A stretch of DNA of 64,000 nucleotides from Romanomermis culicivorax (taxonomy: Eukaryota; Nematoda; Enoplea; Mermithida; Mermithidae): assembly GCA_963922205.1 (NCBI GenBank), contig CAWUHX010000118.1, positions 372,001-436,000 of the forward strand, read 5' to 3'. Below, piece after piece: positions 1 through 50,000 of the stretch. The position numbers and the translations under genes were made by a program. Under the pieces are notes generated by a model. It was not told the origin of the DNA. It ran no database searches and was given only the letters and a program-made list of their open reading frames with translations. Each line of letters begins with the position of its first letter. The first letter of the stretch is position 1.

Positions 1-2320
1 CGTGTTGGCGACTATCCCTGCTGGTCGATGGGGTTTGTTTCGTTTCTTTATGGTGGCGATCATCACAAGAGTGAGACTCGTGGCGTGAACGGTGGCTATC
101 GGGTTGGTGGGCAGGCGGCTGTTTCGCTGCCGGCGCTGCTGCTTTGGAGGAGTCATGTTTGGGTTTCGGTGTTGACGTGGTATGCGAGGATCTTTCAGCT
201 TCTTCGCGAGCTCGCTGTTTATCGCGTTGTTCGCGGTGTCGAGTCGTGCGTTCGCTGGGCGTTCGGCTGCACTCAGCACGCAAAGTGCTGGGTGGCGGCA
301 TGCGCCGCATGCTCGGCTCGTCCATTGATCGTGTTTTATGGGATTTGCGGTACGCCGATTCTTCCTGGAGATGTTGTTTTCGCTTTGCTGCGTGTTCATA
401 TCGGCCGGGTCTGCGGATAGGATTACCGTAGCGATCTAGAGCCGGCACGGACGTGCTGGGAGCCTGTGGGGTTTGAACATCCACAGGCGTCATCGGCGGC
501 ACTATAATCGCTGGTTGCGGCGGTTGCGGAATTGGTTGCGGTTGCGATGTGACTGGCGGCGGTTGTGGAGCCGGTGGTTGCACGATGGGTTGGGCCATCG
601 CGGGAGCCATTTGGGCGACTTGCGGGGCCGGGGCGATCAACGTCGGTGGAGGCAACAAAATTTGTTGTATCTGTTCTTTCAATGCTTCGGGGTAGTCTTT
701 CCAATGATGTTCGGGAAACAACATACCGGGCGGCAGTGGCGGAAAATGATATGCGGCGAGTGCTGCCGCCAAGGCGTCCCATTGAGTGGCTGAAACAATC
801 TGTTGTGAGAAACGTACGGGAGCACTATACCTGGCTGCTGCAACAGTAGCAATGATCGGAGGTCCCGGCAAGGCTGCCGGCGTTGCCAAATATATTCGTG
901 GATCCACGGCGGGTGCCGTGGTCGTTATCGTAGTTGCCGGTTCTGTAGAGAGGACGTCCATAGATGTGGATTGATCCACCGTGCTTTCTTCGGGTATATC
1001 GGTCAACATTTGTTCTGACGTCATCGTCTCGGAGTCAATCCCGGCGGGTTGGACGGGAGTAGACTCGTCCATCGAAGCCGGGGCAATATGGGAAATTTCT
1101 TCGAGTGTCAATTTCAAGAAGTCGTTGATTTGCGTGGCGGTTGCGGTTATATCGGAGGGCGCGGCTACCATAGGAAGGGCCGACGCGTCTGTTGACGGCG
1201 GCAGCTTCGCTATGTTGAGATCGAAGATTGGCGTTTTGAGTAGTTCGTCGTCGGTGGGTTCAACTTCGACATCGATAGGGCGGTCGAGAAGTTCCTCGGC
1301 GGTGAGCGTTTGCACCGAAGCCGTAGTCGGCATGGGGTACGCATACACCGGCGCGGGGAAGGAAAAGCGGTTTCGGAAGTCGATGAGCGCAATGAACGTT
1401 GAATAGAAATGGAAACGGCTGTGTGGATTGGCCGTATAGTCATGTTCATCGATATAAATTTCTTCGACCGACGTTTCCATGTGAAAGTCTTCGTTGAACA
1501 CAATCGGGCGTAACGCAAATCGATTGCAAATATACGTGCCGGGGTTGCTGGAGGAACTGGGTTCGCGTTCCGGGATACGGTTCATCCAATTCGTGAGAAG
1601 CGAATTGGGGTTGCCGTCGCTGCGATACCACATGCACTCGTAAAACCCGGCGCCTATTTCGGGTGTCATGGATTGGGCGTGGCGAAGTAGGACATCGTTG
1701 ACGAAGGCGTATTCTGCGGCGGAACACGGTGACGCAAGGAGCGCGGCTAATGGCATGAAAGATGTTAGTTTCCAGAACCACTCTCTGTCCACCTGCAAAA
1801 AATTAAGGATGGTGGAAGGGTGATAACGGTAATGAGTACCGTTATAGGTGCGCTCACGTAGGGGTTGGTCGGCGGCTACGCGTTCTGTCCACAGATCGTC
1901 AACTTCGTGAGGGAGCGGCGGTAAATTGGGGTCGATGTATGGCATACGATCGCAGACGGCCAACTTGTATATCGGGGAAAGCGGAAAATTGAGCAAGTCG
2001 AGAAGCCGGTCGGTGAGGTTGCTCTTCATGGCCGACGTGACAGCTGCTTGAAGGCGTTTGGGATCATCGAAAACGGATCGTGGTTTAAGAGCCGGGTCAT
2101 CGTCATCGGATACGTCCGGGGATTTGGTCCATTCGTCCTTTTGTTTCTTTTTGTTTTTCTTCGGTACCTTCGGAACGGGAAGAAGCTTCGGGTGAGTTGT
2201 TCGCGTCAAAGGTTTGACGTCCCGGAAGCCATTTGGGACCGTACCTAAACAGAAAGACTGACCGTGGTCGGACGATGTGCAATCATACATAAAAAATTTA
2301 TAAGCCGAAAGAACTTCGTC
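1..2320 (-). CDS. ORF3 C-terminal part: very long open frame, Pro/Gln-rich then basic (partial)
   Basis: In the same frame as the exonuclease-like ORF, after a TAG (2375-2377) and a TGA (2321-2323), the minus strand is open for 773 codons to the window edge. I checked codon boundaries over long stretches and found no stop. A relative at 37776-38258 reads through both positions (CGG in place of the TGA), so the stops look like point mutations and ORF3 was probably one protein of more than 1100 residues. Visible parts: FFMYDC block; Lys-rich patch ([11 protein letters not shown]) followed by four Asp; a hydrophobic/aromatic region near [12 protein letters not shown]; an acidic, Thr/Pro-rich middle; a Pro/Gln-rich stretch (about 660-490); and an Arg/Lys/His/Ser-rich tail (about 420-1). 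The tail could bind nucleic acid. No further domain is recognised. Confidence 0.7.
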
Positions 2321-2374: not shown

Positions 2375-3529
2375 CTAGTCGGGGGGCAGGACATCCGACA
2401 GATCGACGTTGTGAAAGGTGGCGATAACGTATTTGGCGAGATGGTCAATTTCGGCGGCGTCCAACAAGTCGTGGGGAAACAACGCGGGGGCGTTGTAGAC
2501 CTCGGGGATGAAGCCGTAATGACCAAAGGCCAAAAACAATAGCAGTGGGTAATAGGCCTCGAGGGCCGCATAGGTCAGAACGTCGGACTGCAAGAACGAC
2601 GTTGTCGGGTTGTTGAAAAAGCGTAGGGCTCCCGGGAAGCGTAGCGTGAGCTTTGAAACGTCCAGCGCCCACATGGCGGAAACTGTTGCTTTAAGCGTGC
2701 GTTTTTCCGGAAGGAATCCAATGCGTCGCGCCAACTCGTACAGTGACGGGGTTGTGTCGATATTTCGAATAACGCGGTACGCGTCGAAATGAATGGCCTT
2801 AACGACGGGGTCTTTGTTTTTCTTTTGGGGATCGGTTCGAAATTGAGTGCCCAGAAGAGCATATATTCCCGCCCAGTCGTCGGCTCCATCGAAGGAAACT
2901 ACGATGGTGTGGTCGCCGTCGACTAGGGAGAAAAGCGCGGTCCAGTCTTCCGGGGTGGCGGTGAACGTTTCGAAGACGAACATCGTGCCGTTCGGGAATG
3001 CAAGTTGCACATATCGGGGGTAGCTGGATGCCGTGGGGTCAGCTGGCATGGGCACGGCGAACTGGAACTGTTTTATATCGGCGGCCATGATCGATTCGGT
3101 GTCAAAGCCGACCAGTGTGTAGCCACCGAAGTTTGGTGTGGGTTGGGCGGCCAAGGCCTGCCCCAAACTTCCGGGTGAAAGGAATATCGGTGGCGGCAAG
3201 ACGTTCGGGGGTCGTGCGTACATGGAAATGTACCACGACTCCAAATCGGCGACGCGGGTCAGGCGTTTGACGTTGTTTTCTAAACAAGAGCGAATGCGAT
3301 ACTCATCATTGACACATGGGACACCAAGTCGAATGAGCGACATGGGGATTGAAAGATGATGTAAACGTGAACCAGAAGGGAGGCGTTGTGTTGCTATCAA
3401 GTCGTTAGAGGGACACATGCTTTGAGGCGGTGTTGGCTTGGGCGGCGATGTCACTTTGATGGGCGCATTTGGACAACTGGATCGGGCTACGATAGCGCGA
3501 TAACGAGAGTTGTGGTATGCGGAAATCAA
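2375..3529 (-). CDS. ORF3 N-terminal part: DEDDy 3'-5' exonuclease-like domain
   Basis: 384 codons, ending at a TAG. The listed first codon is TTG, and the same frame stays open and conserved with copy 2 for at least 20 codons upstream, so the real start is unknown. Residues about 137-333 follow the RNase D/WRN exonuclease order. Motif I is LVGFDTES (Asp143, Glu145), followed by a strand like IQLA (YVQLAFPN). Motif II is SFDGADDWAGI (Asp214, 217 and 218 are candidates). Motif III is TYAALEAYYPLLL, matching the family's YAxxDA but with Glu324 in place of Asp. The flanks are Pro-rich. Known DEDDy enzymes trim nucleic acid from the 3' end with two metal ions. Activity here is unproven because of the Glu. 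The ORF sits after integrase, where env may occur, but it has no signal peptide or fusion-type region. Confidence 0.7.
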   Translation of the reverse strand: MISAYHNSRYRAIVARSSCPNAPIKVTSPPKPTPPQSMCPSNDLIATQRLPSGSRLHHLSIPMSLIRLGVPCVNDEYRIRSCLENNVKRLTRVADLESWYISMYARPPNVLPPPIFLSPGSLGQALAAQPTPNFGGYTLVGFDTESIMAADIKQFQFAVPMPADPTASSYPRYVQLAFPNGTMFVFETFTATPEDWTALFSLVDGDHTIVVSFDGADDWAGIYALLGTQFRTDPQKKNKDPVVKAIHFDAYRVIRNIDTTPSLYELARRIGFLPEKRTLKATVSAMWALDVSKLTLRFPGALRFFNNPTTSFLQSDVLTYAALEAYYPLLLFLAFGHYGFIPEVYNAPALFPHDLLDAAEIDHLAKYVIATFHNVDLSDVLPPD

Positions 3530-3833
3530 AGCAGCGGCCGGTTGTGGACTGCGGCTGCCACAACTTGACGATGACGGGATCGCGGCGGCTGACCATGGGA
3601 CTCTGACCGAAAACTACAGGGTGGGGGAGGTACCCATAGGGTCCCAAGCAAAAGCATGCGAATATAAGCAGCAAAAGCATAAAAGAGAAAATACCGTCGC
3701 AGGCGAAACTTAGATCATTCTGGTGGGGCTGCTGCTCTGCCCAACGGACGTATCGCTCGTTGACGTTTATTGATTCGCGATACGGCGGAGGCTCGTCGGC
3801 CATGGAGGTAGAACTAGTCGACGGCGTCGTCAT
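3405..3833 (-). CDS. Small ORF with PPPY motif and one membrane segment
   Basis: 142 codons, starting at an ATG that copy 2 shares (26186-25965). The first 45 residues are well conserved between copies: Ser/Thr-rich start, then DEPPPYRESINVNERY. PPPY is a PPxY motif of the kind that binds WW domains of NEDD4-type ligases and serves as a late domain in retroviral Gag proteins; copy 2 has PALY instead. Next comes a hydrophobic run (about residues 49-62, FSFMLLLLIFACFC) able to span a membrane. After this the frame overlaps the exonuclease-like ORF in another frame, and copy 2 diverges by a frameshift, so the C-terminus is uncertain. It could be a short membrane protein, or the first exon or frameshifted N-terminus of ORF3. 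The function is unknown. Confidence 0.55.
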   Translation of the reverse strand: MTTPSTSSTSMADEPPPYRESINVNERYVRWAEQQPHQNDLSFACDGIFSFMLLLLIFACFCLGPYGYLPHPVVFGQSPMVSRRDPVIVKLWQPQSTTGRCFDFRIPQLSLSRYRSPIQLSKCAHQSDIAAQANTASKHVSL

Positions 3834-4017
3834 TTGGAAAAAATAAAATTTTTGGAGCGGCTGGAAAATGCGACTACTGCTGATGGAAGCGAAAGGTGGG
3901 AATGAAATAGTAAAAAGAATAAGCCGCTGAAAGTTGAAGAAAGTGTAAAGTAAGAAAATGCAAACACTACCGTCACGAAGAGCAACACAAACACCACTAT
4001 GTTAATGGAGAATTAGA

Positions 4018-4345: not shown

Positions 4346-6091
4346 CTATTGCCGACGCGAAGTGTGGGCCGTGTGGGGTCCACCTTCTTCGTTTTCGAAT
4401 GCATCCTTTGCCGGTCGTGGGACAAACGGTTTTAGACGTGTTATGGAGATGGTCTGCGGGCAGCCAGGCGCGTTGAGTGAGTCGACGGTGACGACGTTTT
4501 CGGCTGCGCGAGAGGCGTCCGTGATGAGGAAAGGCCCGATGAAGTCGGGTTGAATTTTGTCGGCTTTGCGCCTGTTGGTTAAAAGAACTAAGTCGTTGAC
4601 GACGAAGTCGCGTTTTCGAGCTTCGCGGTCAAAATATTCTTTGCTGGTGGCGGCTGTGGCATTGAGGTTAGCTTTAATCTTTTCGTGCATCTTGAGTTGG
4701 GCTTGCGTTAGAATATGTTGATAAGCGTCATAATTCAACGGTAAGGTGATGCGGCGGGCGCAGTCGTAGTCGAAGGTGATGCGTGGCTCATATCCTCGTA
4801 ATAAACTGAATGGCGAATGGCGTGTGGCTATATGCGGCGTGGCGTTGTAAGCGAACACGGCGTAGGGCAGGTAGCGCTCCCAGTTGTCCGGATCGTCGGC
4901 AGTGTACTTTTTTAGCTGGGCGATCAATGTTTGATTGAAACGTTCGACCATTCCGTTGCATTGAGGGTGGTACGCCGTTGTTTTAACTTTTCTAATTTTG
5001 AGAAGTTCGCAAATATCTTGCATGAGTTTTGACGTAAAGCATCCACCTTGATCGGAAAGGAGTACGAGTGGGCTGCCATGCGTGAGAATGACGTTGTTGA
5101 TAAAACATTCCACTATTGTTGAGGCTTTTTGATCTGGTATCGGATGCGCGGACACGAATTTTGTGAAGTAATCCTGAAAAACAATAACGTAGGGACGTTT
5201 CTCACCTACGGGCGAAATGTTGACGATGTCGGTTGCCACGATTTCGAATGGGTGTTTGGGTTGAATTGGCAACAATGGCGGAGGGGGTGACGTACGCGGT
5301 GTTGTTAGTTGGCAAATTTTGCAAGTTTTGATCCAATCTCGGACGTTTTCTTCCATGCGGGGCCACCAAAAGTGAGCTTTGATTGCTGCTAGCGTGTGGT
5401 TCGTTCCTTGGTGATTCAAAATTTTCGCGCCGTGGAATTGATGAAGAGTTTGGTCGACCATGGAGGCGGGTAGGAGCTTGACTTCTTTAAGTTGACGGTA
5501 CAAAATTTGATCTTCGAGGAAGAAAATCGGTGGATGTTTGGCGGCGTTATTTGTTCTGAGGGTGGCGATAATTTTGGTTATGGCTGGGTCCGCGGCTTGA
5601 GCTTTCAAAACTTCTTCGTGAGCGGCGATCGTAATGACCTCAGCCGGAGGCGGTTCGTGGTCAGCATCTTTAGGCATTGAATTAGAGAGTGTGGGTGAAC
5701 TGATGGTCTTTCTCGTCATTGCACGGGTGATGGCGTTTATTTTGGCGTCGACTTCCGTGGGCAGTGAAGCCACTGCTGGGCGTACTTCGGGTACCGTTAA
5801 GTCGGTTCCCGTAGTTGCACCAGCAGGGTGAAAATTCTCACGGAAAATCGTTGCGGTCAAGTTTTCAGCGTTCTGGATTGGGGATTTGTCGCGGTCATCT
5901 TTCCTGGACAGAAAATCGGGGCAAGCGTTATCCTTACCTTTAACATATTCCACTTTGTAATCGTAATCTTGAAGGCTGATCGCGAAGCGTTGAAGGCGCG
6001 AGTTTCGGTGTTTTTCGTCTTTGAGCCATTCGAGGGGCTTGTGATCGGTGCGGACCATAACTTTCTGGCGGTACACATAGTGGCGGTACAT
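4346..6091 (-). CDS. pol: pol fragment: RNase H C-terminus and integrase
   Basis: 581 codons. The N-terminal part matches the C-terminal half of Ty3/gypsy RNase H (motif DHKPLEWL; later [15 protein letters not shown]). The integrase follows: an HHCC zinc-binding region ([13 protein letters not shown], then KTCKICQ), a DDE core with first Asp in ATDIV, second Asp in [11 protein letters not shown] and Glu in NGMVERFN, and a C-terminal segment with IGPFLI resembling the GPY/F module. All catalytic and zinc residues I can locate are present, unlike copy 2 (zinc Cys changed to Arg, the Glu region lost). The integrase would insert the cDNA into chromosomes. The reading frame continues upstream by a few codons to about 6112, where retroelement sequence stops, so the annotated Met is not a true start. 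There is no reverse transcriptase here, so this copy cannot move by itself. Confidence 0.9.
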
Positions 6092-6111
6092 CCGGAAGCC
6101 GTAGACAATGA

Positions 6112-6278
6112 ATGATGAAGTTCAGTTGAATAACTCCGATGTTTTCATTGCCACATTTTCTCCAATGATGTCCAATATGTGGGCCTACAATGCAATAATC
6201 GAGATTCCAATTTCTATCAGTTTGAACAAAACAATAGCAATCGAGAAGATTTACAGAAAAAGTGGCAACTTGGATGAT
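6112..6278 (+). CDS. Broken exon of an upstream trypsin-like paralog (gene A)
   Basis: An open frame ending in a consensus donor (GAT GAT then GTGAGT at 6279), phase 0. The residues SDVFIATFS and [13 protein letters not shown] line up with DDWSLATVS and YAIPLRINQS of exons 8-9 of the protease gene at 47-57.6 kb, and with the usual trypsin order of the CxxxGWG region followed by the VPI strand. In the related gene these lie on two exons; here they are fused. The 5' side is cut at about 6112 by the minus-strand retroelement. The donor phase equals the phase of the corresponding intron in both domains of the complete gene, which supports the call. The preceding exons with the His and Asp regions are not in the window. 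Confidence 0.55.
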
Positions 6279-9121: not shown

Positions 9122-9928
9122 TGTAACGCCCAGATTTCTATTCTACTTTTACTTGCTTCAACTCTAAGCAGTCCAGGGGGACGGACGATAAATGAATAAT
9201 AAAAACAACAATAAAACAGCTGATGATTCTTTGTATCAACACACAATAAAATAATGGTTCTTGCCTCACAACAAAGCTTCACATAAAAATACAACACCGA
9301 CTCAGAATCTGCATAAAAATCGGCATCAAAATCTGAATTTTTCCGTTTTCTTATCTTTTATATCGCTTCTCTGAACCACGCCTTCAGGCTGTGGGACGTC
9401 CGCTTCGGTTTGCTCACCTAACCAATCGCTGCTTCGCTCACCTGCTTCTGCTTACTGTATGCTTCTATCGCCATGCCTTTTTGCTTTAATTCATGCTTAA
9501 TTTCCACGCTTACATGCTTTAATTTACAGTATGCTTTGCCACGCCTACATGTTTTTTGTTTTTCATGTGTTTTTCGGTTTTCCATGCATTCTACCTAAAT
9601 CTTGTGTCTGGGTCGGGGTTTCTGTATTTTCTACATGGGCAGGTGTGTTTACGATTCTGGGGGGAATTATTGTACCTACAGAATGTATGTTTTCATGTGA
9701 ATTATGAGGGCCACGTGCCGATGTGCAAATAATTATGTACGTCTTAATTGGGTCAATGGGGTGTGGGATGATCAAAACAGAGTGCTTCACATGAATTTAT
9801 ACGAATGTTTGGGTGTGAATTCCAGACACCCTTGAGACGATAGACTATAATATGAATTTATATTTATTAAAGAATATCACATAGTGTACATTTTATGTTT
9901 ACATTGATGCGTTAGCATCTACGTTACA
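9122..9928 (+). mobile_element. Solo LTR, TGTAACG family (807 bp)
   Basis: Begins TGTAACGCCCAG and ends CTACGTTACA, with short terminal inverted repeats TGTAAC/GTTACA. It is flanked by the 4-bp target duplication ACAG (9118-9121 and 9929-9932). A second copy in inverse orientation lies at 16300-17113. There is no internal region, so this is the usual product of LTR-LTR recombination. The true transcriptional orientation is not known. Confidence 0.85.
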
Positions 9929-16299: not shown

Positions 16300-17113
16300 T
16301 GTAATGTACATGCTAACGCATTAATGTAAATACATAATGTGCACTATGTGATATTCATTATTAATTATAAATTCATTTTATAATCTATCATCTCAAAGGT
16401 GTCTGGAATTCACACCCAAACATTCCTATAAATTTATGTGAAGCACTCTGTTTTGATCGTCCCACACCCCATTGACTCAATTAAGATGTACATAATTATT
16501 TGCACATCGGCACCAGGCCCTCGTAACTCACATGAAAACACACATTCTGTAGGTACAATAATTCCCCCCCCCCCCCAGAGGCGTAAACACACCTGCCCAT
16601 GTAGAAAATACAGAAACCCCGACCCAGACACAAGATTTAGGTAGAACGCATAGAAAACCGAAAAAACACATGAAAAACTAAAAACATATAGGCGTGGCTA
16701 AGCATACTGTAGATTAAAGCATGTAAGCATGGAAATTAAGCGTGAATTAAAGCATAGAGGCGGGGGGATAAAAACATACAGTAAGCAGAAGCAGGTAAGC
16801 AAAGCAATGATTGGTTAGGCGAGCAGATGGAAGTGGACCTCCCATGGCATGGTTCAAGAAGTGATATAAAACACAAGAAAAAGGGAAAAAAACAGATTTT
16901 CATGTAGATTCTGAACTTGTGTTATGCGAGACTCCTTTTGATACAGAAGCGTTTTATATTTTGTGTATGTCGACGTCAAGAATCCATCAGTGAGTCAAAT
17001 ATCGTTGTCCTTGTATTATCATTACCATTTGTTGCCCCTGCCTCCCCTTGGACTGTATAGAAGTGCGAGCATTTAGGACCAAGTAAAAGTATAAGCTAAA
17101 ACTGGGCGTTACA
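16300..17113 (-). mobile_element. Solo LTR, TGTAACG family (inverse copy)
   Basis: Reverse complement of the LTR at 9122-9928: starts TGTAATGTACATGCTAACGC, ends CTGGGCGTTACA. The target duplication AAAG flanks it (16296-16299, 17114-17117). It has a run of C near 16562. Its different duplication shows an independent insertion, not an inversion of one element. Confidence 0.85.
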
Positions 17114-23031: not shown

Positions 23032-23599
23032 TGTTGTATTCGTAGGTAGGGTGGCAATTGATGAGTCACAGGCAGGATTAGGATTCCAGGGTTCATCCTT
23101 AATGTACGTATTTCCCACACCCACGTTTACCCGTTTAACCTAATTACTAGTGCTTAAACCCGATACTAATCATCCCACCAATCAAGGAAAAGACGACTTT
23201 CCTTAATTGTCTCCCTTATTGCGTAAAACCGGAAGGGGAGAATTTTCTACCTTTATATTACACAATAAAAACAAACAAAACTTACGTACAAAATGAAAGT
23301 GGGCAAGAAAAGTAAATAATCAACTCCCAGGCACTGGGACGAGAAAAGAAGGCTGTGTGGTAGGAGGCGACGAGTGGGGAAATATAGTAGTGGCCGGCGG
23401 GGCGCACACTTAGTATACAAAACATTCGATAATAATAAAAAAGAATAATAATAATGGAGAGAGACCAGCGCAGGCGTACTGACGTGCACTACAGTAAGAC
23501 AGCTGCTAATGGTCCGCGTTGCTGGCTCCACTTGCCACCTGCTGGCCTCATACGTGCTTTGACAAAATAGCGAAAATCGGCGGAAAACAAACTACAACA
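23032..23599 (-). repeat. 3' LTR of copy 2
   Basis: 568 bp. Several substitutions and short indels separate it from the 5' LTR (for example around 23290-23310), implying an old insertion. Confidence 0.93.
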
Positions 23600-25222: not shown

Positions 25223-25610
25223 AGCGGACGTCGGAGCCGTCGGCGGCTACTATAGTGTGTTCGCCGTCCACTAGAGAGAATAGTGCGGTCCAGTCTTCTG
25301 GGGTAGCGGTGAAGGTTTCGAAAACAAACATTGTGATATTAGGAAACGCGAGTTGCACGTACTGTGGATAGCTGGATGCTGTGGAGTCGGCTGGCATAGG
25401 CATGGTGAACTGAAAATGCTTCATGTCCGTGGCCATGATCGATTCTGTGTGGAAGCCGATGAGGGTATAGCCACGGAAGTTTGGTGTGGGTTGGGCGGCC
25501 AAGGCCTGCCCCAAACTTCCAGGTGAAAGAAATATTGGCGGCCGCAACATGTTTGGAGGTCGGGCATACATACAGATGTGCCAGGATTCCAAATCGGGGG
25601 CGCAGATCAA
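25122..25610 (-). pseudogene. Copy 2 exonuclease-like fragment, truncated
   Basis: Closely matches residues about 94-208 of the copy 1 domain (ESWHICMYARPPN, GYTLIGFHTES, EDWTALFSLVDGEHTIV). The first catalytic Asp is His (GFHTES). After EHTIV the match ends and a stop follows at 25122, so motifs II and III are missing. Non-functional. Confidence 0.8.
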
Positions 25611-25964
25611 ACGTTTGACGTTGTTATCTTAAACAAGAGTGAGCGCGATATTTGACATATAACACATTGAGCACCAAGTCGAGGGAGCGAAAGGGAGGCA
25701 AAAGGGTGATTTTAGAGTGGAACCAAGAGAAAAATGTGGCATTGCTTGCAATGCCAAAAGAGGAAACACGTTCTCCAAAAATGGTAGCTTGGGCCGTGAT
25801 GTCACTTTGACAGGCGCATCTTGTCAACTGGATCGGGCTAGGATAGCGAGATAACGAGAGTTGTTGTATGCGGAAATCAAATCAGCGGCCGGTTGTGGTG
25901 TAGGGGTGCCACAACTTGACGATGATGGGATTGCGGCAGCTGACCATGGGTGTCTGACGCAGGG

Positions 25965-29513: not shown

Positions 29514-30694
29514 TTTGCTGGTGATAGTTGGTTTGTGGACCGCGGACAGCGCTTTAGGTTTGACCTGGTTAGGCAGTCAACCAAAGACCTGAGCCGGTTC
29601 AGTTTCACTGAGAGTTTCATTTGGGATGTAAATATCTCACTTTCCTCGCTGTGAAACTGTGAGGACACCCGCAGTGGTCTTGGTGTGGGCGGATTATGCG
29701 TATTAGTTGCAGCAGCAGTGGTCGAAATCAACTGTTGCATTTGTTCTGCGAGAGCAGTGAAGCTCGCATTTGTAGCCTTAGTTTGTTCTTGGATTTTGCG
29801 TTGGACGTGTAGTTGTTGGGCTTGAAATTGATCAGAAATGGGGCCGATAATTTGATCAATTGTTTGCACTGTGGGGACATTGTTGGTTATGCATGCTGCG
29901 GCGGTGCTAAGTTGATCCAATGCATCCCCTGCTTCGATTCGAAAATTATGAACTTCATTAGTGTTTGCGATTGCTAGGCTGCTGCGGTGGTTGTTTGTCA
30001 AAACGCAGGTGGCGGCTGGGGCCTGCGGTGGGTCAATACTGATGAAGGATTCTGAAGAGTCGGTTTTGGCCATGATTTGATCAGTGCTACCTTGGGCGGC
30101 AGTGTTTGGCGGCGGTATTTGTGATACGGCCGGTGTGTTAGGACAAATGATGGTGGCAATGAGAGAGTTTTGATTTAGCGATGGTGGGGTTTGTGAATTG
30201 GCTGTCGCCGCGGTTGCGGAAATGAGTGGTGCTTGTGGTTGTGCGGACCCGTCCAATGCAGGAGTACTGAAAGTAGACAAGGGTGGATTATGGAGCGGGA
30301 GGCTTATCATTGGTACTGCTGTTGATTGCACAATATTCGGTGGTCGGGGCAATAACATTTGATCAAAGCTCAAGGGGCGGTGCGCGGCTGTGGGGGCCTT
30401 AGGTGAGCTGGACTGCGACGGGAGGGGTGTGAAATCCGGTGGCATATGACTTGCCTTTGGCATGTTTTTCGGCAGGGTATAATAATCTTTTTTGTATCCT
30501 TGGGTGCAGCTGCAGTGAGGTCGAATTTTGAAACTTTTGAGTGTTTTCGGATGCAACGCAATGGCGGGGAAAGAAAGCGTACAATCCAATACGGTCACCA
30601 GTGTTGTATTCGTAGGCAGGGCGGTGATTGATGAGTCACAGGCAGGATTGGGATTCCAGGGTTCGTCCTGAATGTACATGTTTCCCACACCCAC
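29510..30694 (-). CDS. gag: Copy 2 gag-like ORF
   Basis: 394 codons, open from inside the 5' LTR across the primer-binding site to the start of the RT frame. Pro/Thr/Gln-rich N-terminal half, then a likely helical or coiled segment ([26 protein letters not shown]). No CCHC knuckle is visible, consistent with a deletion before RT. Related sequence recurs at 42346-43507. Whether translation starts in the LTR or at a later Met is unknown. Confidence 0.65.
30584..30601 (-). promoter_or_regulatory. Primer-binding site candidate of copy 2
   Basis: Directly after the 5' LTR, the minus strand reads C TGGTGACCGTATTGGAT. TGG matches the CCA end of a tRNA. I cannot say which tRNA. Confidence 0.6.
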
Positions 30695-31177
30695 ATTTAC
30701 CCGATTAACCTAATTACTAGTACTTAAACCCGATACTAATTATCCCACCAATCAAGGAAAAGACGACTTTCCTTAATTGTCTCCCTTATTGCATAAAACC
30801 AGGGGGAGAGAATTTTCTACCTTTATATTACGAAATAAAAACAAACAAAACACGTACAAAATGAAATTCGGTGGCGAGCGGGCGAGAAAAGTAAATAATC
30901 AACTTCCACGCACTGAGACGAGAAAACAGGGCTGCATGGTGGGAGGCAATGAGTGGCGAAATATAGTAGTGGCGGGCAGGGCGCACACTTAGTATTCAAA
31001 ACATACCATAATAATAAAAAAGAATAATAATAATGGAGAGAAACCAGCACATGCGTACCAACGTGAGCTACAGTAAGATGGCTGCTAATGGTCCGCGTTG
31101 CTCGCTCCACTTGCCACCTGCTGGCCTCATATGCTCTTTGACAAAATAGTGAAATTGATGGAAAACACACTACAACA
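30602..31177 (-). repeat. 5' LTR of copy 2
   Basis: 576 bp, TG...CA. Solo copies of the same family lie at 32301-32846 and 41511-42092. Confidence 0.93.
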
Positions 31178-31247: not shown

Positions 31248-32907
31248 AACAAAGGGCAGTAAGTTTGTTGGCAGATTAAAGGTCGACTATAGTAATCAGG
31301 GATTAGATGTCCCTTATAATCCAGGATTAAATTTTTTTGTAAGTCTGTGGGCTGATCAAACGTCGATTAATTCAATCGGGGATTAAAGCAATGTGTAAGT
31401 TCATCAGCAGATTAAAGCTTGATTATCATAATTGGCGATTATAATAATCTGAGTTTTCAATCCTGCTCCACCCCAGTTTTAATAGGCCAATTATACCTGT
31501 TTTTGTGATTGCGCGTTCGCTTTTGTAGTTGAAAAATGAACGTTGTTGATTTTTTTAATGATCTAAATGAGGATGAAGCAGAAAATTAAGTACAAATTCG
31601 TCATTCCATGGATAATTGGAATCCAATGGAAGCATATTCGAATGAGAAGTTCTAGTCCTGCCTGATTCATACTACATAAGGATGGTGCAAGAGAGCTAAT
31701 TGGATAAAAGAATTAATAAAAATAAAAAATAAACAAAAAAATTTAAAAAAAAATGAAATTTCTTAAATAAAATTCAATAAAAATTTTTTAATCACGAATT
31801 TCAAAAAAAGTATAAAAATTTTTTAAAATTCTTTTCAAAATAATTCGATTTCTTCCGAATTAAAATTAGTGGTTGTCTACTGACATGTGGATTATGATTT
31901 TGATATCACAAAAGAGTTGATAAAGATAAATTGATAATGAAAGATGATGTGCAGAAGGAAAAGCTGTACACCTACACTACAGACAGTATACGTCGTATAG
32001 TTTTCAATCAGCGATTATACTTTTACTCCTGCATTATATGATTTTAATCAGCAATTAAGTAATCGTCCTCTAATTGGCAGACGAACTTACCGATTATTTT
32101 AATCACGGATTGAATTTTAATCATCAATTACATAATTGGGGATTGAACATTATCCTTGATTATTTTAATCGGCCAACAAACTTACCAATCCTACACTATA
32201 GACAGTATACATTATACATACAGTTTTCAGTCAGCAAATATACTTGGCTGATGAACTTACTGACTTTTTTAATCATCAATTAAATTTCAATCCATCATTA
32301 TGTTGTAGTGTGTTTTCGCTGATTTTGCCATATCTTGTCAATTCACGAATGAGGCCCGCAAATGCCAAGTGGAGTGAGCGATGTGGACCATCAACAGTCG
32401 TCTTACTGTAGCACACGTCGGTACGCCTGCGCTGGCTCTCTCATTGTGAATTATTCTTATATGTTTTATGTTTATAACATGTGCCCCACTGGCCACTTTA
32501 TCTCTACTCCCGCCTCCCCGCACGCACATCCTGATTTGTTTTTCTTCCCAGTGTGTGGGAGTGAATCATCTGTTTTCTCGCCCCGTATCGCTTGTAAGTA
32601 AGTGTTTTTTTTGATTCCGTAAGATAAAATTAGAAAGGTCTCTCCTTTCCGGTTCATACTTAATTGGGGAGACAATTAAGGAAACATCTTTTCCTTAATT
32701 GGTAGGGTCATTAGTGTCGGGTTTAAGTACAACTAATTAAGTCAATCGGGTAAGCGTGGGCGTGGGAAATACGTACATTAAGGACGAACCCTGGGATCCC
32801 AATCCTGCCTGAGACTCACAGCCCGGACTTATTTTCAAATACAACAATTACATCATCAGGGATTAAACATAATCCTAGCTTATTTTAATCAGCCAACAAA
32901 CTTACCA
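31248..32907. mobile_element. Foldback element with TTTGTTGGC subterminal repeats, interrupted by an LTR
   Basis: Left end GTAAGTTTGTTGGCAGATTAAA (31249 on) is inverted at 32880-32907 (TTTTAATCAGCCAACAAACTTAC) and also internally at 32162-32190. Many copies of AATCAGGGATTAAA-type words occur in both arms. The solo LTR at 32301-32846 is inserted in the right arm. No coding capacity. Confidence 0.6.
32301..32846 (+). mobile_element. Solo LTR of the exonuclease-carrying family (546 bp)
   Basis: Begins TGTTGTAGTGTGTTTTC and ends AAATACAACA, opposite in orientation to copy 2. Target duplication ATTA (32297-32300, 32847-32850). Confidence 0.88.
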
Positions 32908-37775: not shown

Positions 37776-38258
37776 CTAACTTTCAGGTGATTCTCCATTT
37801 CTTGGCCCTACAATCTCATAAAAATAATATAGCCATGGTGACCACTGCTTATAGGCGCTTGGGCTCCTCCCAAAGTTTTTTCGGCTGCAATGAAGGGTCT
37901 TCCTCATTGGATGATCAGGTGAAATATTCCATTCCTCGTGCTTTGGTTTCTTCTTCTTTTTCTCTGGCATTTTTGGTTTCATGATCAGCTTCGGGGGTGA
38001 GTCATCTGAGTCAAGGTTTTCAGTTAGCAAAAGCCATTTAGTTGAGTTTCTAAAGAAAAAAATTCGACTGTGGTCAGTCAATGTGCAATCATACATGAAA
38101 AATTGGTATGCACAAAGAACCTCGTCCCGCATAATTGCCGGCTGGGCGGTTCGTGAGAGCATCCGGTATACCCCAGTGCTGACATCATTGGGTAAAACGT
38201 TGTTGTGAAAATGGGCCACAACTATACCTGCCAGCTGATCGATTTCAGTGGATTCCAA
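37776..38258 (-). pseudogene. Third copy of the retroelement ORF3 (fragment across the exonuclease/C-terminal junction)
   Basis: 160 codons. STEIDQLAGIVVAHFHN matches AAEIDHLAKYVIATFHN at the end of the copy 1 exonuclease-like ORF; PAIMRDEV, FFMYDC, a Lys-rich patch (EKKKKKPKHEEW) and SPD match the copy 1 sequence beyond its two stops. It therefore shows that the junction was once an uninterrupted frame. No LTR is seen next to it. Confidence 0.75.
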
Positions 38259-38259
38259 T

Positions 38260-41200
38260 GTGAAAGATGGGCGAATGGGGTAGGAAGGGCAGAAAGCAGA
38301 TGGGGGGGGGGGGACTGGTTCGGACTTTGCTGGAAAAGGGTTCGGGTAGTAGTCGGTCAGGTGAAATGTTAATCAATAGTCGAAACTTCGTGCTGGCCAG
38401 AGAGACCAGCAAGAAACATAAACACGTTCTTTATTTTTCTAACAATAACAGACTATATTCACCCAGGCTTTATGGCCAAAAAAATAAAACACAGTTATGC
38501 AAAAATAAGGCACAAAAACAAAAGGAAAATGATCAATGCAAGTATTTATTCATCATGAATGTGTTTTAATAGTAATAAGTTTACTGTAATATGAGAAATA
38601 ATGGATAATACCAGTTTAGCTGAATGTGTGGTATACTACAAATGATTCATGCAGATAAAGCAATGCAGCACCATTGATTTATGGAATGGCGCTGCAGCAA
38701 CCAAACGCCAGGTACAACAGGATGGGATGAATGGCTGGTTTGGGATTGCTATGCAACCATACTGTGAATAATCGTTTCTGTGCACAGAGCTTTTCCTACA
38801 GTGGTGAGCAACGTTTCAGTAGTGTATGGGTATTTTTTGTGATTATTATTTTCCTACACAGAAATGAAATTTTTTTCACCATAAATTGTACGACTAATAA
38901 TCAAAGTGGTAAGGCCTTAACAGAACTATTTGCTGGCTAAATTTTTCGAACCTTGGCTTTTCTAGAAAATTATTAACGTTGAACATGGAAATTGGACGAT
39001 TTACGATTAAATATTTGTTTATTTTACATTCAGATTGAACACCTTTATTTTTTCGCATGACACCCTATGTTAAGCCAAATAGGAATTATTCCATTGCTAA
39101 AATTTTTCCCCGATATGGTTGGCAACCATAAGCTCTTCATTTCTATCTCTATAAATTTGTGTAGTGCTTTCGTTGTGCCTGTGAGATATGTCAAAGATGA
39201 AAGTGTGATGTTAGCTCTCAACCAGTATGCCTGAAGTATACATGCTATCGTCAGATATAACACAAGTTTGCGAGTCACTTTGAAGAACAGTCAGAAAATG
39301 TTGTTCTTCGAGGATAACAACTACAACTATCAGGGCGCAACAGTTGTTAAACTAGTGAGCATATTTCTTTTAATGAAACTTTTCTTCTAAAAAATCTACT
39401 TCGCACATAAAATTTCAAGATCTGATGCGAGAATGTGTGAATAGTACGTATTGTTTGAATTTCGGTAATAACAAACATTAGTCAATTTCCATACTTTCTT
39501 TGCTGGATGGGGAAGGGAGATTGTTTAAGTCAAAGAGGGCGAATCTTACAAAACCAACACAGTTCTTCCACAAAGTGGCAATATGCAGAAATGATGCATA
39601 TGAAAATTCACAGCAGAGCTAGAGCAGTACATTAAATAACTTTCTGAGTGGTGCTAGAGCTGTCCTACCACTGGCCAACATCAAGTTAGGTGTGTTCATG
39701 CCAACAGGGCCTGTCAGAAATATGACAGGGTTCCAAACTGGTGTATTGGCAAAAACATCAAACATGAATCCTATAGGTTTGCTTTTGTACCAGAGTGAGT
39801 AGTTATACAAGCCCATACAGGGGAGTAGTTATATGGGCCTGTGCAATGGAGGTACACAAAAAAGTCAAGCTTCAAAGGTGTGGCTTATAGCATGTGGGGT
39901 TTCACAGGGGGTTTACAGGGGGTCCACATTGCTGGGGACATTAGGGTTGTCACATTGACATGGAAATTCTACATCCCTGTAGAAAGGTGTGTTTCTGATT
40001 ATTTAGGTGGATTTCCTAATAATCTGGATATTCAAGAAAGCTGCTCCCCGGTGTGGCCATAGCCTACTCAGATTCAGCAGGTAGCTGTTTGCATTCCTCA
40101 TTCTCCTCTCACCCTTTACTAGTGTACATTTTCTCACCACTACCCCACCTTTTGGGTTGTTTTTGTTTTGTTTTTATTGATTGGTATTGCGCAACATTGG
40201 GTGTTTCATTACGTAAGTAACCATTATTATTTGTATTAGATAAAAAGAAGAAAAACTCCTGTCTCCTCTAAAATCATATAGCTACTAACTCAAATTGAGA
40301 AACTAAACGTTTATAAATTTGGGTTGATTGTTCTTGATTCAATATAATTCATTAGTATTAGTCGTTTCGGTAAAGATTTTGTTTGTAGATAGCCCATGTC
40401 CTAAGGTCTCCTGCAATTTGTTGGCTCATTTTCTGATTTATGGATTTATTTATCTTCACAATAAATGTAGACAATTTCTGTAAAATTGGCGAATTTTCAA
40501 AAATGTGAGAAAAACGATTTTCCATAGAGATTGGAGAATTTTCCAAATATTTTATATCTTTGATCAAAATATGACAAATTTTTATTTTTTCAATTTAGCG
40601 ATTCTTATGTGAGCGATTTCATGAAACATCACATTACAAGCTGTCATTTTAAATAACCGTAGTCTCCAGTATAATTCTAGCACAGTTTGATGTGCTTGAG
40701 TCTTCAATCTCTGAAAATTTTCATGAAGAACATAAACCAAAGAATGCTGGAAGAAACAAAACATCAAGAGAAAGGAAATGTAAACAAAAATAAAGACATT
40801 AAGAATACGTGAAAATAGGCGGAAAATCATTAAAAAAGAAAGAAAACATTAAGGCAGTAGCAAGAAAGAGGGAGCAACATAGAGAAAGCAGCAACCAAGA
40901 AAGAAAAAATTGTAAAAAAAGAACAAAAAAGAAAACATCAGGAGTGATTGAAAGCAAAAAACTAAGACAAAAAAATCAGGAAAAATCACAAAGGATAAAA
41001 TTATGTAGAATATAGAGCTTGTGGTACAATATAAGAAATATATGAAAAACAATGAAGAAAAATCACAAAACATAAAATTATCTGGAAAACAGAGCATTAC
41101 GAATGGCGTGAGAACTATAAGGGATATTATGCTTATTAAAAATAAGAACTTGGGATTTGTTGTTTCATGAGCAAAAACGAAAAAGGTAGATGAAAAGAAA

Positions 41201-41353: not shown

Positions 41354-42236
41354 AAATCGCCCAATTGGTAATTTGCTGACTTGGGAATTCACTCTGGGAA
41401 TCACTCACATGGGAGTCCCTCACTTGGAAATTCGCTCAGTTGGGAATACCGTCAACTGTTACTCACTCACATGAGAATCGCCCAATTGGGAATTCACTCA
41501 CTTGGGAATTTGTTGTATTTGGGTTTTGCCTTCGGCGCTGATGGATCGTGGGCAGGATTGGGATTCCGAGGTTGCGTCCTTAATGTACGTGTTTCCCCAC
41601 ACCCACATTTACCCGATAGCCTAATTACTGGTACTTAAACCCCAACACTAAATATCCCACCAATTAAGAAAAATCTAATTTCCTTAATTGTCTCCCCTAT
41701 TGCGCAAGATCGAAAGGCGAGAGAAATTTCTACCTTTATCTATTACGCAATAAAACGAGAAAAAACACTTACATACACAAATGGAAAAACGGGCGAGAAA
41801 ATAAAGTGATCAACTCCCACGCACTGGGACGGAAAAGAAAAAGAGTTGCATGGTGGGAGGCGGCTAATGGCGAAACTAGTGGTGGCCGGCGAGGCACACA
41901 ACTAGTGTATAAAAACGAATGAAAATATTAATCAACAATAACAATGAGAGAGAGAGACCAGCGCACGTGTACCGACGTATGCTACAGTAAGATGGCTGTT
42001 AATGGTCCAAGTTGCTCTCTCCACTTGCCACCTGCGGGCCTCTTACGCGCTTTGACAAAATAACGAAAATCGGCGGAAAACACACTACAACAAATTCGCT
42101 CAATTGGGAATTGCTCACATGGGTATCACTCACTTACTTGGGAATTCGCTCACATGGGAGTTTGCTCAATTGGGAATCTCTTACTTGAGAATTCCTCACT
42201 TGGAGATTGCTCACTTGGGAATACCCCACAGGCATT
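41354..42236. repeat. 16-bp minisatellite split by a solo LTR
   Basis: Degenerate units CTCAYWTGGGAATTYG (CTCACATGGGAGTCC, CTCACTTGGAAATTCG, CTCAATTGGGAATT) at 41354-41510 and 42093-42236. The LTR at 41511-42092 sits inside. Confidence 0.75.
41511..42092 (-). mobile_element. Solo LTR of the exonuclease-carrying family (582 bp)
   Basis: TGTTGTATTTGG...CACACTACAACA, target duplication AATT (41507-41510, 42093-42096). Same orientation as copy 2. Confidence 0.9.
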
Positions 42237-47084: not shown

Positions 47085-50000
47085 GTAAGTATACCATTCC
47101 CATATTTGCAGAAAATTTTTATCATTCTCAATTGACTCTGTGGAATATTGTTGCATGCTATATTTTGGGCCATTCATGTAATTGAACAGTAGCTAAGGCA
47201 CAATTGGGAGTTGTTAGAATTTCTTTAGACAGAGCTTGAAGAATGGATATGCTTGTTTTTCGGACCACCTTGACCTCCTGTGGATAGAGTACAAAAACAT
47301 TCAATCATGAAGAGAATTATGTCAAGCTGCTCTCTTCAAATGGCTGCTTAGGTCAGAAGACGTCAGCAACATGAGCAAAGATGCTACCAGCTTGCACATG
47401 GCTGATTACTGCAGGTTTAGGGCTTCCTATAAGTTGAGGCCAATACAGTGCAACAGTTTTCCATAAGACTAAACACAACCTTCAGTTGCAGCATCACATA
47501 AGTTTGCTGAGACTGGAACTAACACATGCTTGCAATCGAAAAGCAATCAGGGCTGCTCCAGATACTTCCTGCAGGCTAAAATGCAATACAGTAGATACTC
47601 ACTATAATAGTGAGGTACTGTAAGCATTCAAATGTCCTTCTCCTATGGCAAAGATGTCGGGGTTGCCACAGGTGCACGTGTTCAGCTTCCGGCGTCGGTG
47701 CGCAGGCGGAAGGATGCAGCAAAAAGTGGCAAAAAAAGAAAAGAAAATTCGCATGGAGAAATGTGGCCGCTGTTCCACGTGTTTTTGTGTTTATTTTCAT
47801 TCTAAAAAATATTATGTGTTTTGTTGGAAGAAAGTAAAGTAAAGTAAAGTAAAGTAAAGTAAAGTAAAGTAAAGTAAAGTAAAGTAAAGTAAAGTAAAGT
47901 AAAGTAAAGTAAAGTAAAGTAAAGTAAAGTAAAGTAAAGTAAAGTAAAGTAAAGTAAAGTAAAGTAAAGTAAAGTAAAGTAAAGTAAAGTAAAGTAAAGT
48001 AAAATAAAGTAAAGTAAAGTAAAGTAAAGCAAAGTAAAGTAAAGTAAAGTAAAGTAAAGTAAAGTAAAGTAAAGTAAAGTAAAGTAAAGTAAAGTAATCT
48101 TATGAGTAAATCTAGCATTTTATAATATGGAAAATTGAAAATCTTTCTGGTACTCCATGTTGGAATGAGGAAGAAATTGCAAATTATTAGCTTGATTCTT
48201 AATTATTCCCCAATTTAGTAAAAACATTTTTTTGTAGGGTAGAAATCTGAAATATTTCTAGGTATTCTATACTGGAATAAGGTAATAATGTAAATTATTT
48301 TTATTATGATAATTACTATTATTATAATGTGAGTGAACTAACTAGAATTATGGTATGATTTTCATGTGAAGAAAAACCTTTGAGGAGAAAAATAAAGGCT
48401 ATGACTATGTCTGAGTTTGGAACTTGTGAAATGGACAAAGATCATGTAACATGTACACAAGCATACACTGAAAACATGTCAGCTGACAACTTTTCTGCGT
48501 GTGTGATTTTCAGATTTGCCTATCGAATCCACTGTGGAGTCGTCTCAAGCGAGTTAAGGCTGATGAAGATGCAGAACCTCATTCAAAACCTTGGATGGTG
48601 TCCTTGCAAAGAAAATGTGGTTCATTCCTCATCAGTCGCAAGCCTCATCTTTTTTTAACTGATGTTCATGAAGGATCATCAGATATTTTGCTCACTGCAG
48701 CACACTGCATTGTGCCTGCTTCGTAAGTGTAATTGTTTGTGTTCAATCATTGCATTTTCAGTTGGCCATTTTAGTGCGAGTCTCAAAAATCAATACTTTT
48801 ATAGTATTGGGGACAGTAAAACTGCCAAAAAACTCACATTTTAATATAAAAGATATCATTGCACACAAAAATGCTAGCAGCCAGAGAATTTACAGAAAAT
48901 GTTATAATTTGGTTTCAGTTAGTTGGAACTAGAAAATTTGGGTTTTTTACTGAACTATTATATGTTGAAAATTATCTTTTCCTTTTATTTTTTCTTGTAT
49001 AATCTGGTTTTACTGATAATTTAGTCACATTTTACCCTTTTTGGAATGAAAATAGACTTTTCATGATTCAAAGAGCTCTCATCACTATTGTATAAAGGTC
49101 ATCAGATGGTTCAGTCTTGTACCCAGAAGGTAAAGCGTTTAAGCCACCAACTGTGTGTTGTATTCCTGATGTTTCAGCAGCATGGATTTTTGCATATAAC
49201 AAACATATACAAAATTGAGTTTTGCATCTGGTGGACAATTTCTGTAGAGCTTTTCAACATTTTTTTTTACTTTTCTACAATTGCATATGACCAACATATA
49301 ACAAACAGATATACAGGGCATTACAGTTTTGAAGCTTGGCTACTATTTGGATGGTCCTTATTAAATATTTTCATTCCTTGAAAATGTTAATCAAATTTTC
49401 AGACATGATCCAGCCTTCAATATACAGTACCCATCGATCGTTGCTTCACTGGGGAAACATAATTTAGCAGTATACAATGAACCACACCAAGTTAAAATAC
49501 CTGTTGAGAAAGCAATCATTCATGAGCAATACCGTTCCTACTATAATGATATTGCCATTATCAAATTGGAAAAACCAGTACAGTTCAATGAATATATACG
49601 ACCGATTGCTTTGTCCCAATTCACTCTAGACGACGTCGAAAATTGCTCTTTGAGTGGATGGGGCAAGAGCCAAAATGGAGGTATGATTCATCTGTCTCTG
49701 ATTCAAAATCATTGAGTAGAAAAGTATGATTGGAAAAAAACGAAAAAGTGAGCTACAATCGCAATAACACAAAAAATCAGGCTGAAAATATGGTTTAACA
49801 ACATGTTCGACATCACTGTTTTGTGGGAATTTGTTGAGATCCGATGGTTGTCAAGAAGTTGCAGCAGAGAAATAAAAAGTTTCCTTCACCTGCTGAGAGT
49901 ATTAGAGTTCACATGCATTCCTATAATTGGAAGGCGCACATAAATTCCCAGTAAGCTATGCACTCAAAATTCTCAGCTGTTCCAATCTGCAGAAGTATGA

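What the first reader, a model, noticed from the sequence alone, without database searches (positions are those of the whole stretch)
2375..3600. LTR retroelement family with a DEDDy 3'-5' exonuclease-like domain after integrase
The ORF in the env position has the RNase D/WRN order of motifs: GFDTES (D-x-E), then a YVQLAF strand, SFDGADDW, and TYAALEAYYPLLL. It lies inside the LTR-bounded copy 2 as well and recurs in a third copy, so it belongs to the element. I know of no Ty3/gypsy group defined by such a domain. It could trim cDNA or RNA ends, remove small RNAs, or compete with host silencing exonucleases; all of these are speculation.
Basis: partly seen in the sequence, partly recalled or inferred. 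Interest (0 to 1): 0.88.

Follow-up and report, generated by a model that had tools for sequence, protein, structure and literature searches.

The report
Nematode retroelements carrying a captured exonuclease
Young, abundant mobile elements in a mosquito-parasitic worm carry, where a virus envelope gene would sit, a protein that very probably contains an RNA/DNA-trimming exonuclease kept by strong natural selection; the idea is known from rotifers, and the nematode case looks new.

Summary
The window is Romanomermis culicivorax (mermithid nematode). The ORF is real, follows integrase, and belongs to an abundant, young Ty3/gypsy-type LTR family (A). In intact copies it opens a ~1,650-codon frame, probably spliced to a short upstream exon; the first ~330 bases of the reported ORF are then intron. 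The exonuclease reading is probable, not proven: motif order and profile comparison with DEDDy enzymes beat shuffled, reversed and most unrelated controls, but no Pfam hit is significant and two AlphaFold models were unusable. The strongest support is indirect: a second LTR family in the same genome (B) carries an unmistakable DEDDy domain (PF01612, E 1.4e-10) in the same post-integrase position. Both domains show strong purifying selection (dN/dS about 0.07). New here, within the searches made: nematode host, fusion into a long, probably spliced non-envelope protein, an RT-less family that keeps the domain, and evidence of selection on it. Activity and role are untested.

The parts
4346..6121 (-). 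family A copy 1: RNase H - integrase part of ORF1 (gag-pol); RT not in this frame
   Evidence: Pfam RT_RNaseH 3.2e-11, Integrase_H2C2 2.2e-17, rve 2e-12
3695..3833 (-). probable exon 1 of ORF2 (starts MTTPSTSS..., contains PPPY)
   Evidence: no stop and no inner indel in 12 of 12 aligned copies (one row starts two bases late), then a GT donor; UniProt gene models P0003 and P0021 use this junction, P0007 the same donor with an upstream acceptor
3280..3694 (-). probable intron between exon 1 and the exonuclease exon; the reported ORF's first ~334 bases lie in it
   Evidence: GGTATT donor and TTGTTTAG|AA acceptor in 11 of 11 family A copies (copy 2 of the window differs at both); indels of 1-2 bases among recent copies
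2375..3279 (-). exonuclease exon of ORF2 in copy 1, ending in a stop codon that intact copies lack
   Evidence: ORF; open frame 412 here against ~1,650-1,670 in many copies
3095..3103 (-). ExoI motif D-T-E (residues 171-173)
   Evidence: kept in 11 of 11 copies
2876..2878 (-). ExoII acidic residue (second D of GADDW, residue 246; assignment by alignment)
   Evidence: 10 of 11 copies; register with RNase D
2558..2572 (-). ExoIII motif Y-x-x-x-D/E (residues 348-352); E in this copy
   Evidence: Y 11 of 11; D 8, E 3 of 11
2..2320 (-). continuation of ORF2 in the same frame (lysine-, proline-, RS/RD-rich; no Pfam family)
   Evidence: same frame in intact copies
23032..23599 (-). 3' LTR of copy 2
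   Evidence: 87.9% identical to 30602-31177
30602..31177 (-). 5' LTR of copy 2
25230..25958 (-). exonuclease remnant of copy 2 (residues 3-245, 66% identity)
   Evidence: tblastn
38184..38735 (-). decayed traces of the exonuclease C-terminal part (third copy)
   Evidence: tblastn E 0.006 and 0.063; next ORF matches 37828-38126

Best explanation
ORF2 of a young Ty3/gypsy-type LTR family in Romanomermis culicivorax encodes a long non-envelope accessory protein whose N-terminal ~220 core residues are a diverged DEDDy (RNase D/WRN/MUT-7 type) 3'-5' exonuclease domain. It is most likely made from a spliced subgenomic RNA, as env is in retroviruses. Shown: position, copy number, open frames, conserved splice-like ends, strong purifying selection, and an undisputed DEDDy domain in the same position in a second LTR family of the genome. 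Inferred: the fold of family A's domain, its catalytic activity, splicing, and its job, which I take to be trimming 3' ends of RNA (element RNA or small RNAs against it) in the replication cycle, aided by the lysine- and RS/RD-rich tail.
For: Profile comparison P 2.9e-5 with the ExoII and ExoIII parts in register; an intact copy alone gives P 5e-6 over 138 columns from D-x-E to Y-x-x-x-D; 0 of 200 shuffles reach the observed score, reversed profiles fail; 0 of 87 decoys reach the window copy. Family B: PF01612 E 1.4e-10, WRN 1.3e-6 and MUT-7 6.8e-5 among PDB sequences (profile of 12 sequences), LTRs 99.8% identical in the copy read. Selection: exo core dN/dS 0.074 in 11 copies, against 0.072 (protease region), 0.031 (RT), 0.034 (integrase) in six copies; family B exo 0.065 in 29 of 30 loci, one dropped as partial. 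54 of the 101 scored places list frames of at least 1,550 codons, 20 of these 54 with one stop inside the match. LTR pairs 98.3-99.8% identical in 6 of 6 full copies, with 4-base target repeats by my reading of the flanks.
Against: No significant Pfam or PDB sequence hit for family A. Among 38 members, PF01612 is matched by 3 at best E 0.092, behind DUF4350 (5 members, E 0.0054) and CMS1 (5, 0.025). AlphaFold2 failed twice and Foldseek found nothing. With a cellular-only DEDDy profile 4 of 8 single sequences were equalled or beaten by one or two of 87 decoys. Three of 11 copies, the window's included, have E for the last catalytic D, and one lacks the ExoII D. Direct A-to-B profile comparison is weak (P 0.006). 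Four truncated rows were dropped from the family A profile. The copies used for dN/dS were picked for high score or long frame, which favours intact ones.
Confidence: 0.68

Rival explanations
1. The domain has the DEDDy fold but is no longer an enzyme; it binds RNA, as the DEDD derivatives EXD1 and Maelstrom do, for example to carry element RNA.
For: E instead of D at the ExoIII position in 3 of 11 copies and a lost ExoII residue in 1 of 11; PMC5408684 names EXD1 and Maelstrom as inactive DEDD relatives that keep RNA binding (passage).
Against: D-x-E in 11 of 11 and Y-x-x-x-D in 8 of 11 copies; family B keeps the ExoII D and Y-x-x-x-D in 29 of 29 loci and D-x-E in 26 of 29.
Confidence: 0.17
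2. The family A domain is not a DEDDy exonuclease; an unrelated, conserved alpha/beta domain happens to carry similar motifs.
For: No significant library hit; the best single Pfam score is to DUF4350; failed structure models.
Against: Motifs in order and register with controls failing or mostly failing; family B precedent in the same position.
Confidence: 0.13
3. The ORF is an envelope (fusion glycoprotein) gene, as its position suggests.
For: Post-integrase position and an env-like splicing pattern; a hydrophobic stretch in an ORF at 3405-4001.
Against: That stretch lies in the probable intron, whose frame is broken by indels between copies. Of four ORF2 pieces of one copy scanned apart, only one 19-residue window exceeds 1.6 Kyte-Doolittle, in the predicted last exonuclease helix. 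No Pfam envelope hit.
Confidence: 0.02

Closest known systems
Bdelloid rotifer LTR elements Juno and Vesta with DEDDy ORF3 (Rodriguez, Kenefick, Arkhipova 2017, PMC5408684)
   Same: LTR element with PR-RT-RH-IN order and an RNase D-like DEDDy third ORF in place of env; that paper also has a non-autonomous family (TelKA2n, lacking most of pol) that keeps its third ORF, there env-like (section 3.6)
   Different: Nematode host; the exonuclease is the N-terminal part of a ~1,650-codon, probably spliced ORF; no dUTPase hit in ORF1 pieces; D to E at the last position in some copies, against DEDD changed to DEED in rotifers; [quoted passage not shown]
Cellular DEDDy exonucleases (RNase D, WRN, MUT-7, Rrp6; Pfam PF01612)
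   Same: Order of ExoI D-x-E, ExoII acidic residue, ExoIII Y-x-x-x-D; family B matches PF01612 above its cut-off
   Different: Family A reaches no significant Pfam score; longer inserts; part of a mobile element
Athena/Terminon retroelements of bdelloids with DEDDy ORFs (passages of PMC5408684)
   Same: A retroelement carrying a DEDDy ORF
   Different: Penelope-like, not LTR elements
Ty3/gypsy (Metaviridae) elements with an env-like third ORF
   Same: pol order, LTR ends TG...CA and 4-base target repeats, GPF at the integrase C-terminus (sequence)
   Different: Third ORF is not an envelope; no phylogenetic placement was made

Membership tests
DEDDy 3'-5' exonucleases | ExoI D-x-E | tested here: met
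   11 of 11 family A copies; in UniProt models, decayed ones included, D 32 of 41 and E 34 of 42
DEDDy 3'-5' exonucleases | ExoII aspartate | tested here: met
   10 of 11 copies; 60 of 80 UniProt models; which D of GADDW is inferred from alignment
DEDDy 3'-5' exonucleases | ExoIII Y-x-x-x-D | tested here: met
   Y 11 of 11, D 8 of 11, E 3 of 11 copies, the window's own copy having E; UniProt models D 52 of 63
DEDDy 3'-5' exonucleases | significant match to PF01612 | tested here: not met
   family A: 3 of 38 members match, best E 0.092; family B meets it
DEDDy 3'-5' exonucleases | RNase H-like exonuclease fold | tested here: inconclusive
   two AlphaFold2 models with mean pLDDT 43.7 and 41.2; Foldseek uninformative
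DEDDy 3'-5' exonucleases | metal-dependent 3'-5' activity | not testable with these tools
   needs purified protein
Bdelloid Juno/Vesta DEDDy LTR elements | DEDDy third ORF between LTRs | tested here: met
   family A, fold probable; family B
Bdelloid Juno/Vesta DEDDy LTR elements | dUTPase between protease and RT | tested here: not met
   no dUTPase match at E <= 1 in the five family A ORF1 pieces scanned
Bdelloid Juno/Vesta DEDDy LTR elements | ORF3 groups with the bdelloid DEDDy ORFs | not tested
Ty3/gypsy (Metaviridae) | LTRs and PR-RT-RH-IN order | tested here: met
   family A; protease matched only weakly (E 0.043) because a piece boundary cuts it

The most novel reading that the evidence does not exclude
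The exonuclease is a counter-defence enzyme: in a nematode reported to lack Piwi it removes 3' ends of the Dicer/RdRP-type small RNAs aimed at retroelements, and the RT-less family B survives as an element whose best conserved protein is this silencing suppressor, spread in trans by other elements' RT.
Probability: 0.1. Interest if true: 0.85.

Novelty: new variant of a known kind. Interest (0 to 1): 0.5.

Why it matters
DEDDy ORFs in retroelements were known from bdelloid rotifers, where the authors left open whether such ORFs help the element. Here two LTR families of one nematode keep such a domain at dN/dS about 0.07, close to the protease region, one of them without a detectable reverse transcriptase. 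That argues the domain matters to the elements and makes its role testable in a worm that, by the cited paper, lacks Piwi.

Tried and rejected
Sequence search of PDB with family A alone and as a profile: no credible hit. Pfam and NCBIfam over 38 members: nothing significant. AlphaFold2 with a family A alignment (24 rows) and with a mixed A + B + P0147 alignment (25 rows): mean pLDDT 43.7 and 41.2. For the mixed alignment the B sequences were cut to start just before their D-x-E, and six A proteins with long N-terminal ends used in a first version were dropped. Foldseek with the second model: 0 matches at E <= 0.001, best E 1.9. A common C-terminal domain of A and B ORF2, suspected by eye: rejected, no better than shuffles. 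A small PPxY membrane protein encoded by 3405-4001: rejected, the frame after the donor is broken by indels between copies. Relatives in viral contigs: none confirmed for A or B. Direct A-B relationship of the two exonucleases: weak, left open.

Literature: the lists (capped at 8 to 20 papers where more matched) named no paper on an exonuclease-bearing LTR element in nematodes; only that library was searched and no supplements were read. PMC6338049 was seen in two passages, PMC4323106 and PMC10879605 in passages. EXD1/Maelstrom are taken from a passage of PMC5408684; other family knowledge is recalled.

[quoted passage not shown] P0007 uses another acceptor than P0003 and P0021.

Full report
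Host and element. All 74 proteins found with the ORF at E <= 0.001 are Romanomermis culicivorax, and the window's assembly (359,112,060 bases, 595 contigs) agrees with the published long-read assembly of that species (359.1 Mb, 595 scaffolds; passage of PMC10879605). The ORF family (family A) is abundant: 3,626 candidate places, of which the tool scored 101, each matching over at least 401 of 412 residues, so 101 is a lower bound. Of the 101, 54 list frames of 1,550 codons or more, 20 of these 54 with one stop inside the matched stretch; some of those stops may lie in the probable intron, which was not checked copy by copy.

Anatomy of family A. Six copies were read on both sides: LTR of about 590 bases starting TGTT and ending AACA; ORF1 with RT, RNase H and integrase domains and a weak protease match at a piece boundary (open over 2,285 codons in two of six copies, split by stops in the other four); a gap of about 0.7-0.8 kb; ORF2, 1,658-1,713 codons stop to stop, starting with the exonuclease-like region; and the second LTR. 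LTR pairs are 98.3-99.8% identical; by my reading of the flanks 6 of 6 have a 4-base target repeat. The window's copy 1 is a decayed relative that runs off the window's left end.

Expression. Twelve copies aligned around the ORF2 start share a stop-free first exon (MTTPSTSS...; PPPY in 9 of 12, altered in L004, L008 and copy 2). A GGTATT donor and a TTGTTTAG acceptor are kept in 11 of 11 family A copies; copy 2 of the window differs at both. Between them lie 1-2 base indels among recent copies. Automatic gene models P0003 and P0021 use this junction; P0007 uses the same donor and an upstream acceptor. Residues 1-140 of the stop-to-stop frame show dN/dS 0.418 while the exonuclease core shows 0.070 in the same six copies. 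I infer an env-like spliced message; no RNA data were seen.

Is it a DEDDy exonuclease? The motif order is right. In 11 copies D-x-E is kept in 11, ExoII D in 10, ExoIII Y in 11 and D in 8 (E in 3, the window's copy among them). A family A profile (30 rows, four truncated ones dropped) against a DEDDy set of ten (RNase D, four PDB proteins, one of them a reconstructed ancestor, P0147, four family B sequences) gives hhalign score 39.0, P 2.9e-5; 200 column shuffles reach at most 23.1 and the reversed set 13.3. Against the six non-B sequences only: 32.7, shuffles at most 25.0. Eight single family A sequences against 87 decoys (74 stop-to-stop E. coli frames, 13 other pieces of the element): 7 of 8 above all decoys with the full set, 4 of 8 with the cellular set. 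The best single copy aligns over 138 columns from D-x-E to Y-x-x-x-D, P 5e-6. Against: no significant Pfam, NCBIfam or PDB sequence hit, DUF4350 scoring better than PF01612 for single members, and structure prediction failed twice. I put the DEDDy fold at about 0.85 and activity lower.

Family B. Searching the same genome for PF01612 gave 80 matches among 119 scored candidates; 30 were fetched, two read upstream. The copy read on both sides has LTRs 99.8% identical, by my reading the same 4 bases on both sides, an ORF1 of 1,155 codons with zinc knuckle, RNase H and integrase zinc-binding matches but no RT match, then an ORF2 of 608 codons with PF01612 at E 1.4e-10; a profile of 12 such domains matches WRN (1.3e-6) and MUT-7 (6.8e-5) among PDB sequences. 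In the second copy ORF1, itself split by stops, is collinear with the first over residues 1-839, so 2 of 2 copies read show no room for RT. The RNase H-integrase part is distantly related to family A's (23% over 553 columns, E 1.6e-25). Whether A and B inherited one captured exonuclease or captured it separately is unresolved.

Selection. Family A exonuclease core, 11 copies: mean dN 0.026, dS 0.345, ratio 0.074. In six copies: protease region 0.072, a gag region 0.064, RT 0.031, RNase H 0.045, integrase 0.034, and ORF1 residues 1-300 0.201 in five; the rest of ORF2 0.13-0.22. Family B exonuclease, 29 loci: 0.065 with dS 1.08, near saturation; the rest of its ORF2 0.171 in 24 loci. In 253 family B pairs measured in both regions, exo 0.064 against 0.659 for the integrase-like end of ORF1, though the latter's silent divergence is oddly low (0.21 against 1.04), which I cannot explain. 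The copies were chosen for high score or long frame, which leans towards low ratios. [quoted passage not shown] its discussion says in general that intragenomic evolution of the extra ORFs shows no significant departure from neutrality.

Function. The tail of ORF2 is lysine-, proline- and RS/RD-rich and shows no convincing membrane segment outside the exonuclease region in the four pieces scanned, so it looks like an RNA-associated protein rather than an envelope. Trimming of RNA 3' ends is the natural guess and one the rotifer authors also raise. R. culicivorax is reported to lack PRG-1/Piwi and detectable 5'-triphosphate small RNAs while having DNA methylation machinery (passages of PMC4323106), so a nuclease acting on other small RNAs is conceivable; nothing here tests it.

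Verdict. It is a new variant: not seen for a nematode in the paper lists, present in two families, under strong selection, one family without a detectable RT.

Noticed in passing
L051, L028, L052, L054 (family B): An LTR family shows no RT match in 2 of 2 copies read (one with 99.8% identical LTRs and open ORFs), yet keeps a strongly conserved exonuclease ORF; non-autonomous in appearance.
   Followed up: partly
family B loci L021-L050, the ~900 bases of ORF1 end next to ORF2: Integrase-like end of ORF1 has dN/dS 0.66 but silent divergence five times lower than the neighbouring exonuclease in the same pairs; constraint not of the usual protein kind.
   Followed up: partly
window ~3441-3520 (minus strand, inside the probable intron): About 80 bases are 96-99% conserved across 11 aligned copies, more than exon 1 (92-96%); possible cis-acting RNA signal.
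   Followed up: no
window 32301-32818 and 41551-42099: Two further sequences 72-80% like the LTRs of copy 2; solo LTRs or remnants.
   Followed up: no
window 47761-48172: Tandem array with a 10-base period.
   Followed up: no
window 52840-53753: Inverted repeat, arms 260 bases, 88% complementary, 394 bases between.
   Followed up: no
window 9318-9928 and 16300-16910: Inverted repeats, 87% identical, about 6.4 kb apart.
   Followed up: no
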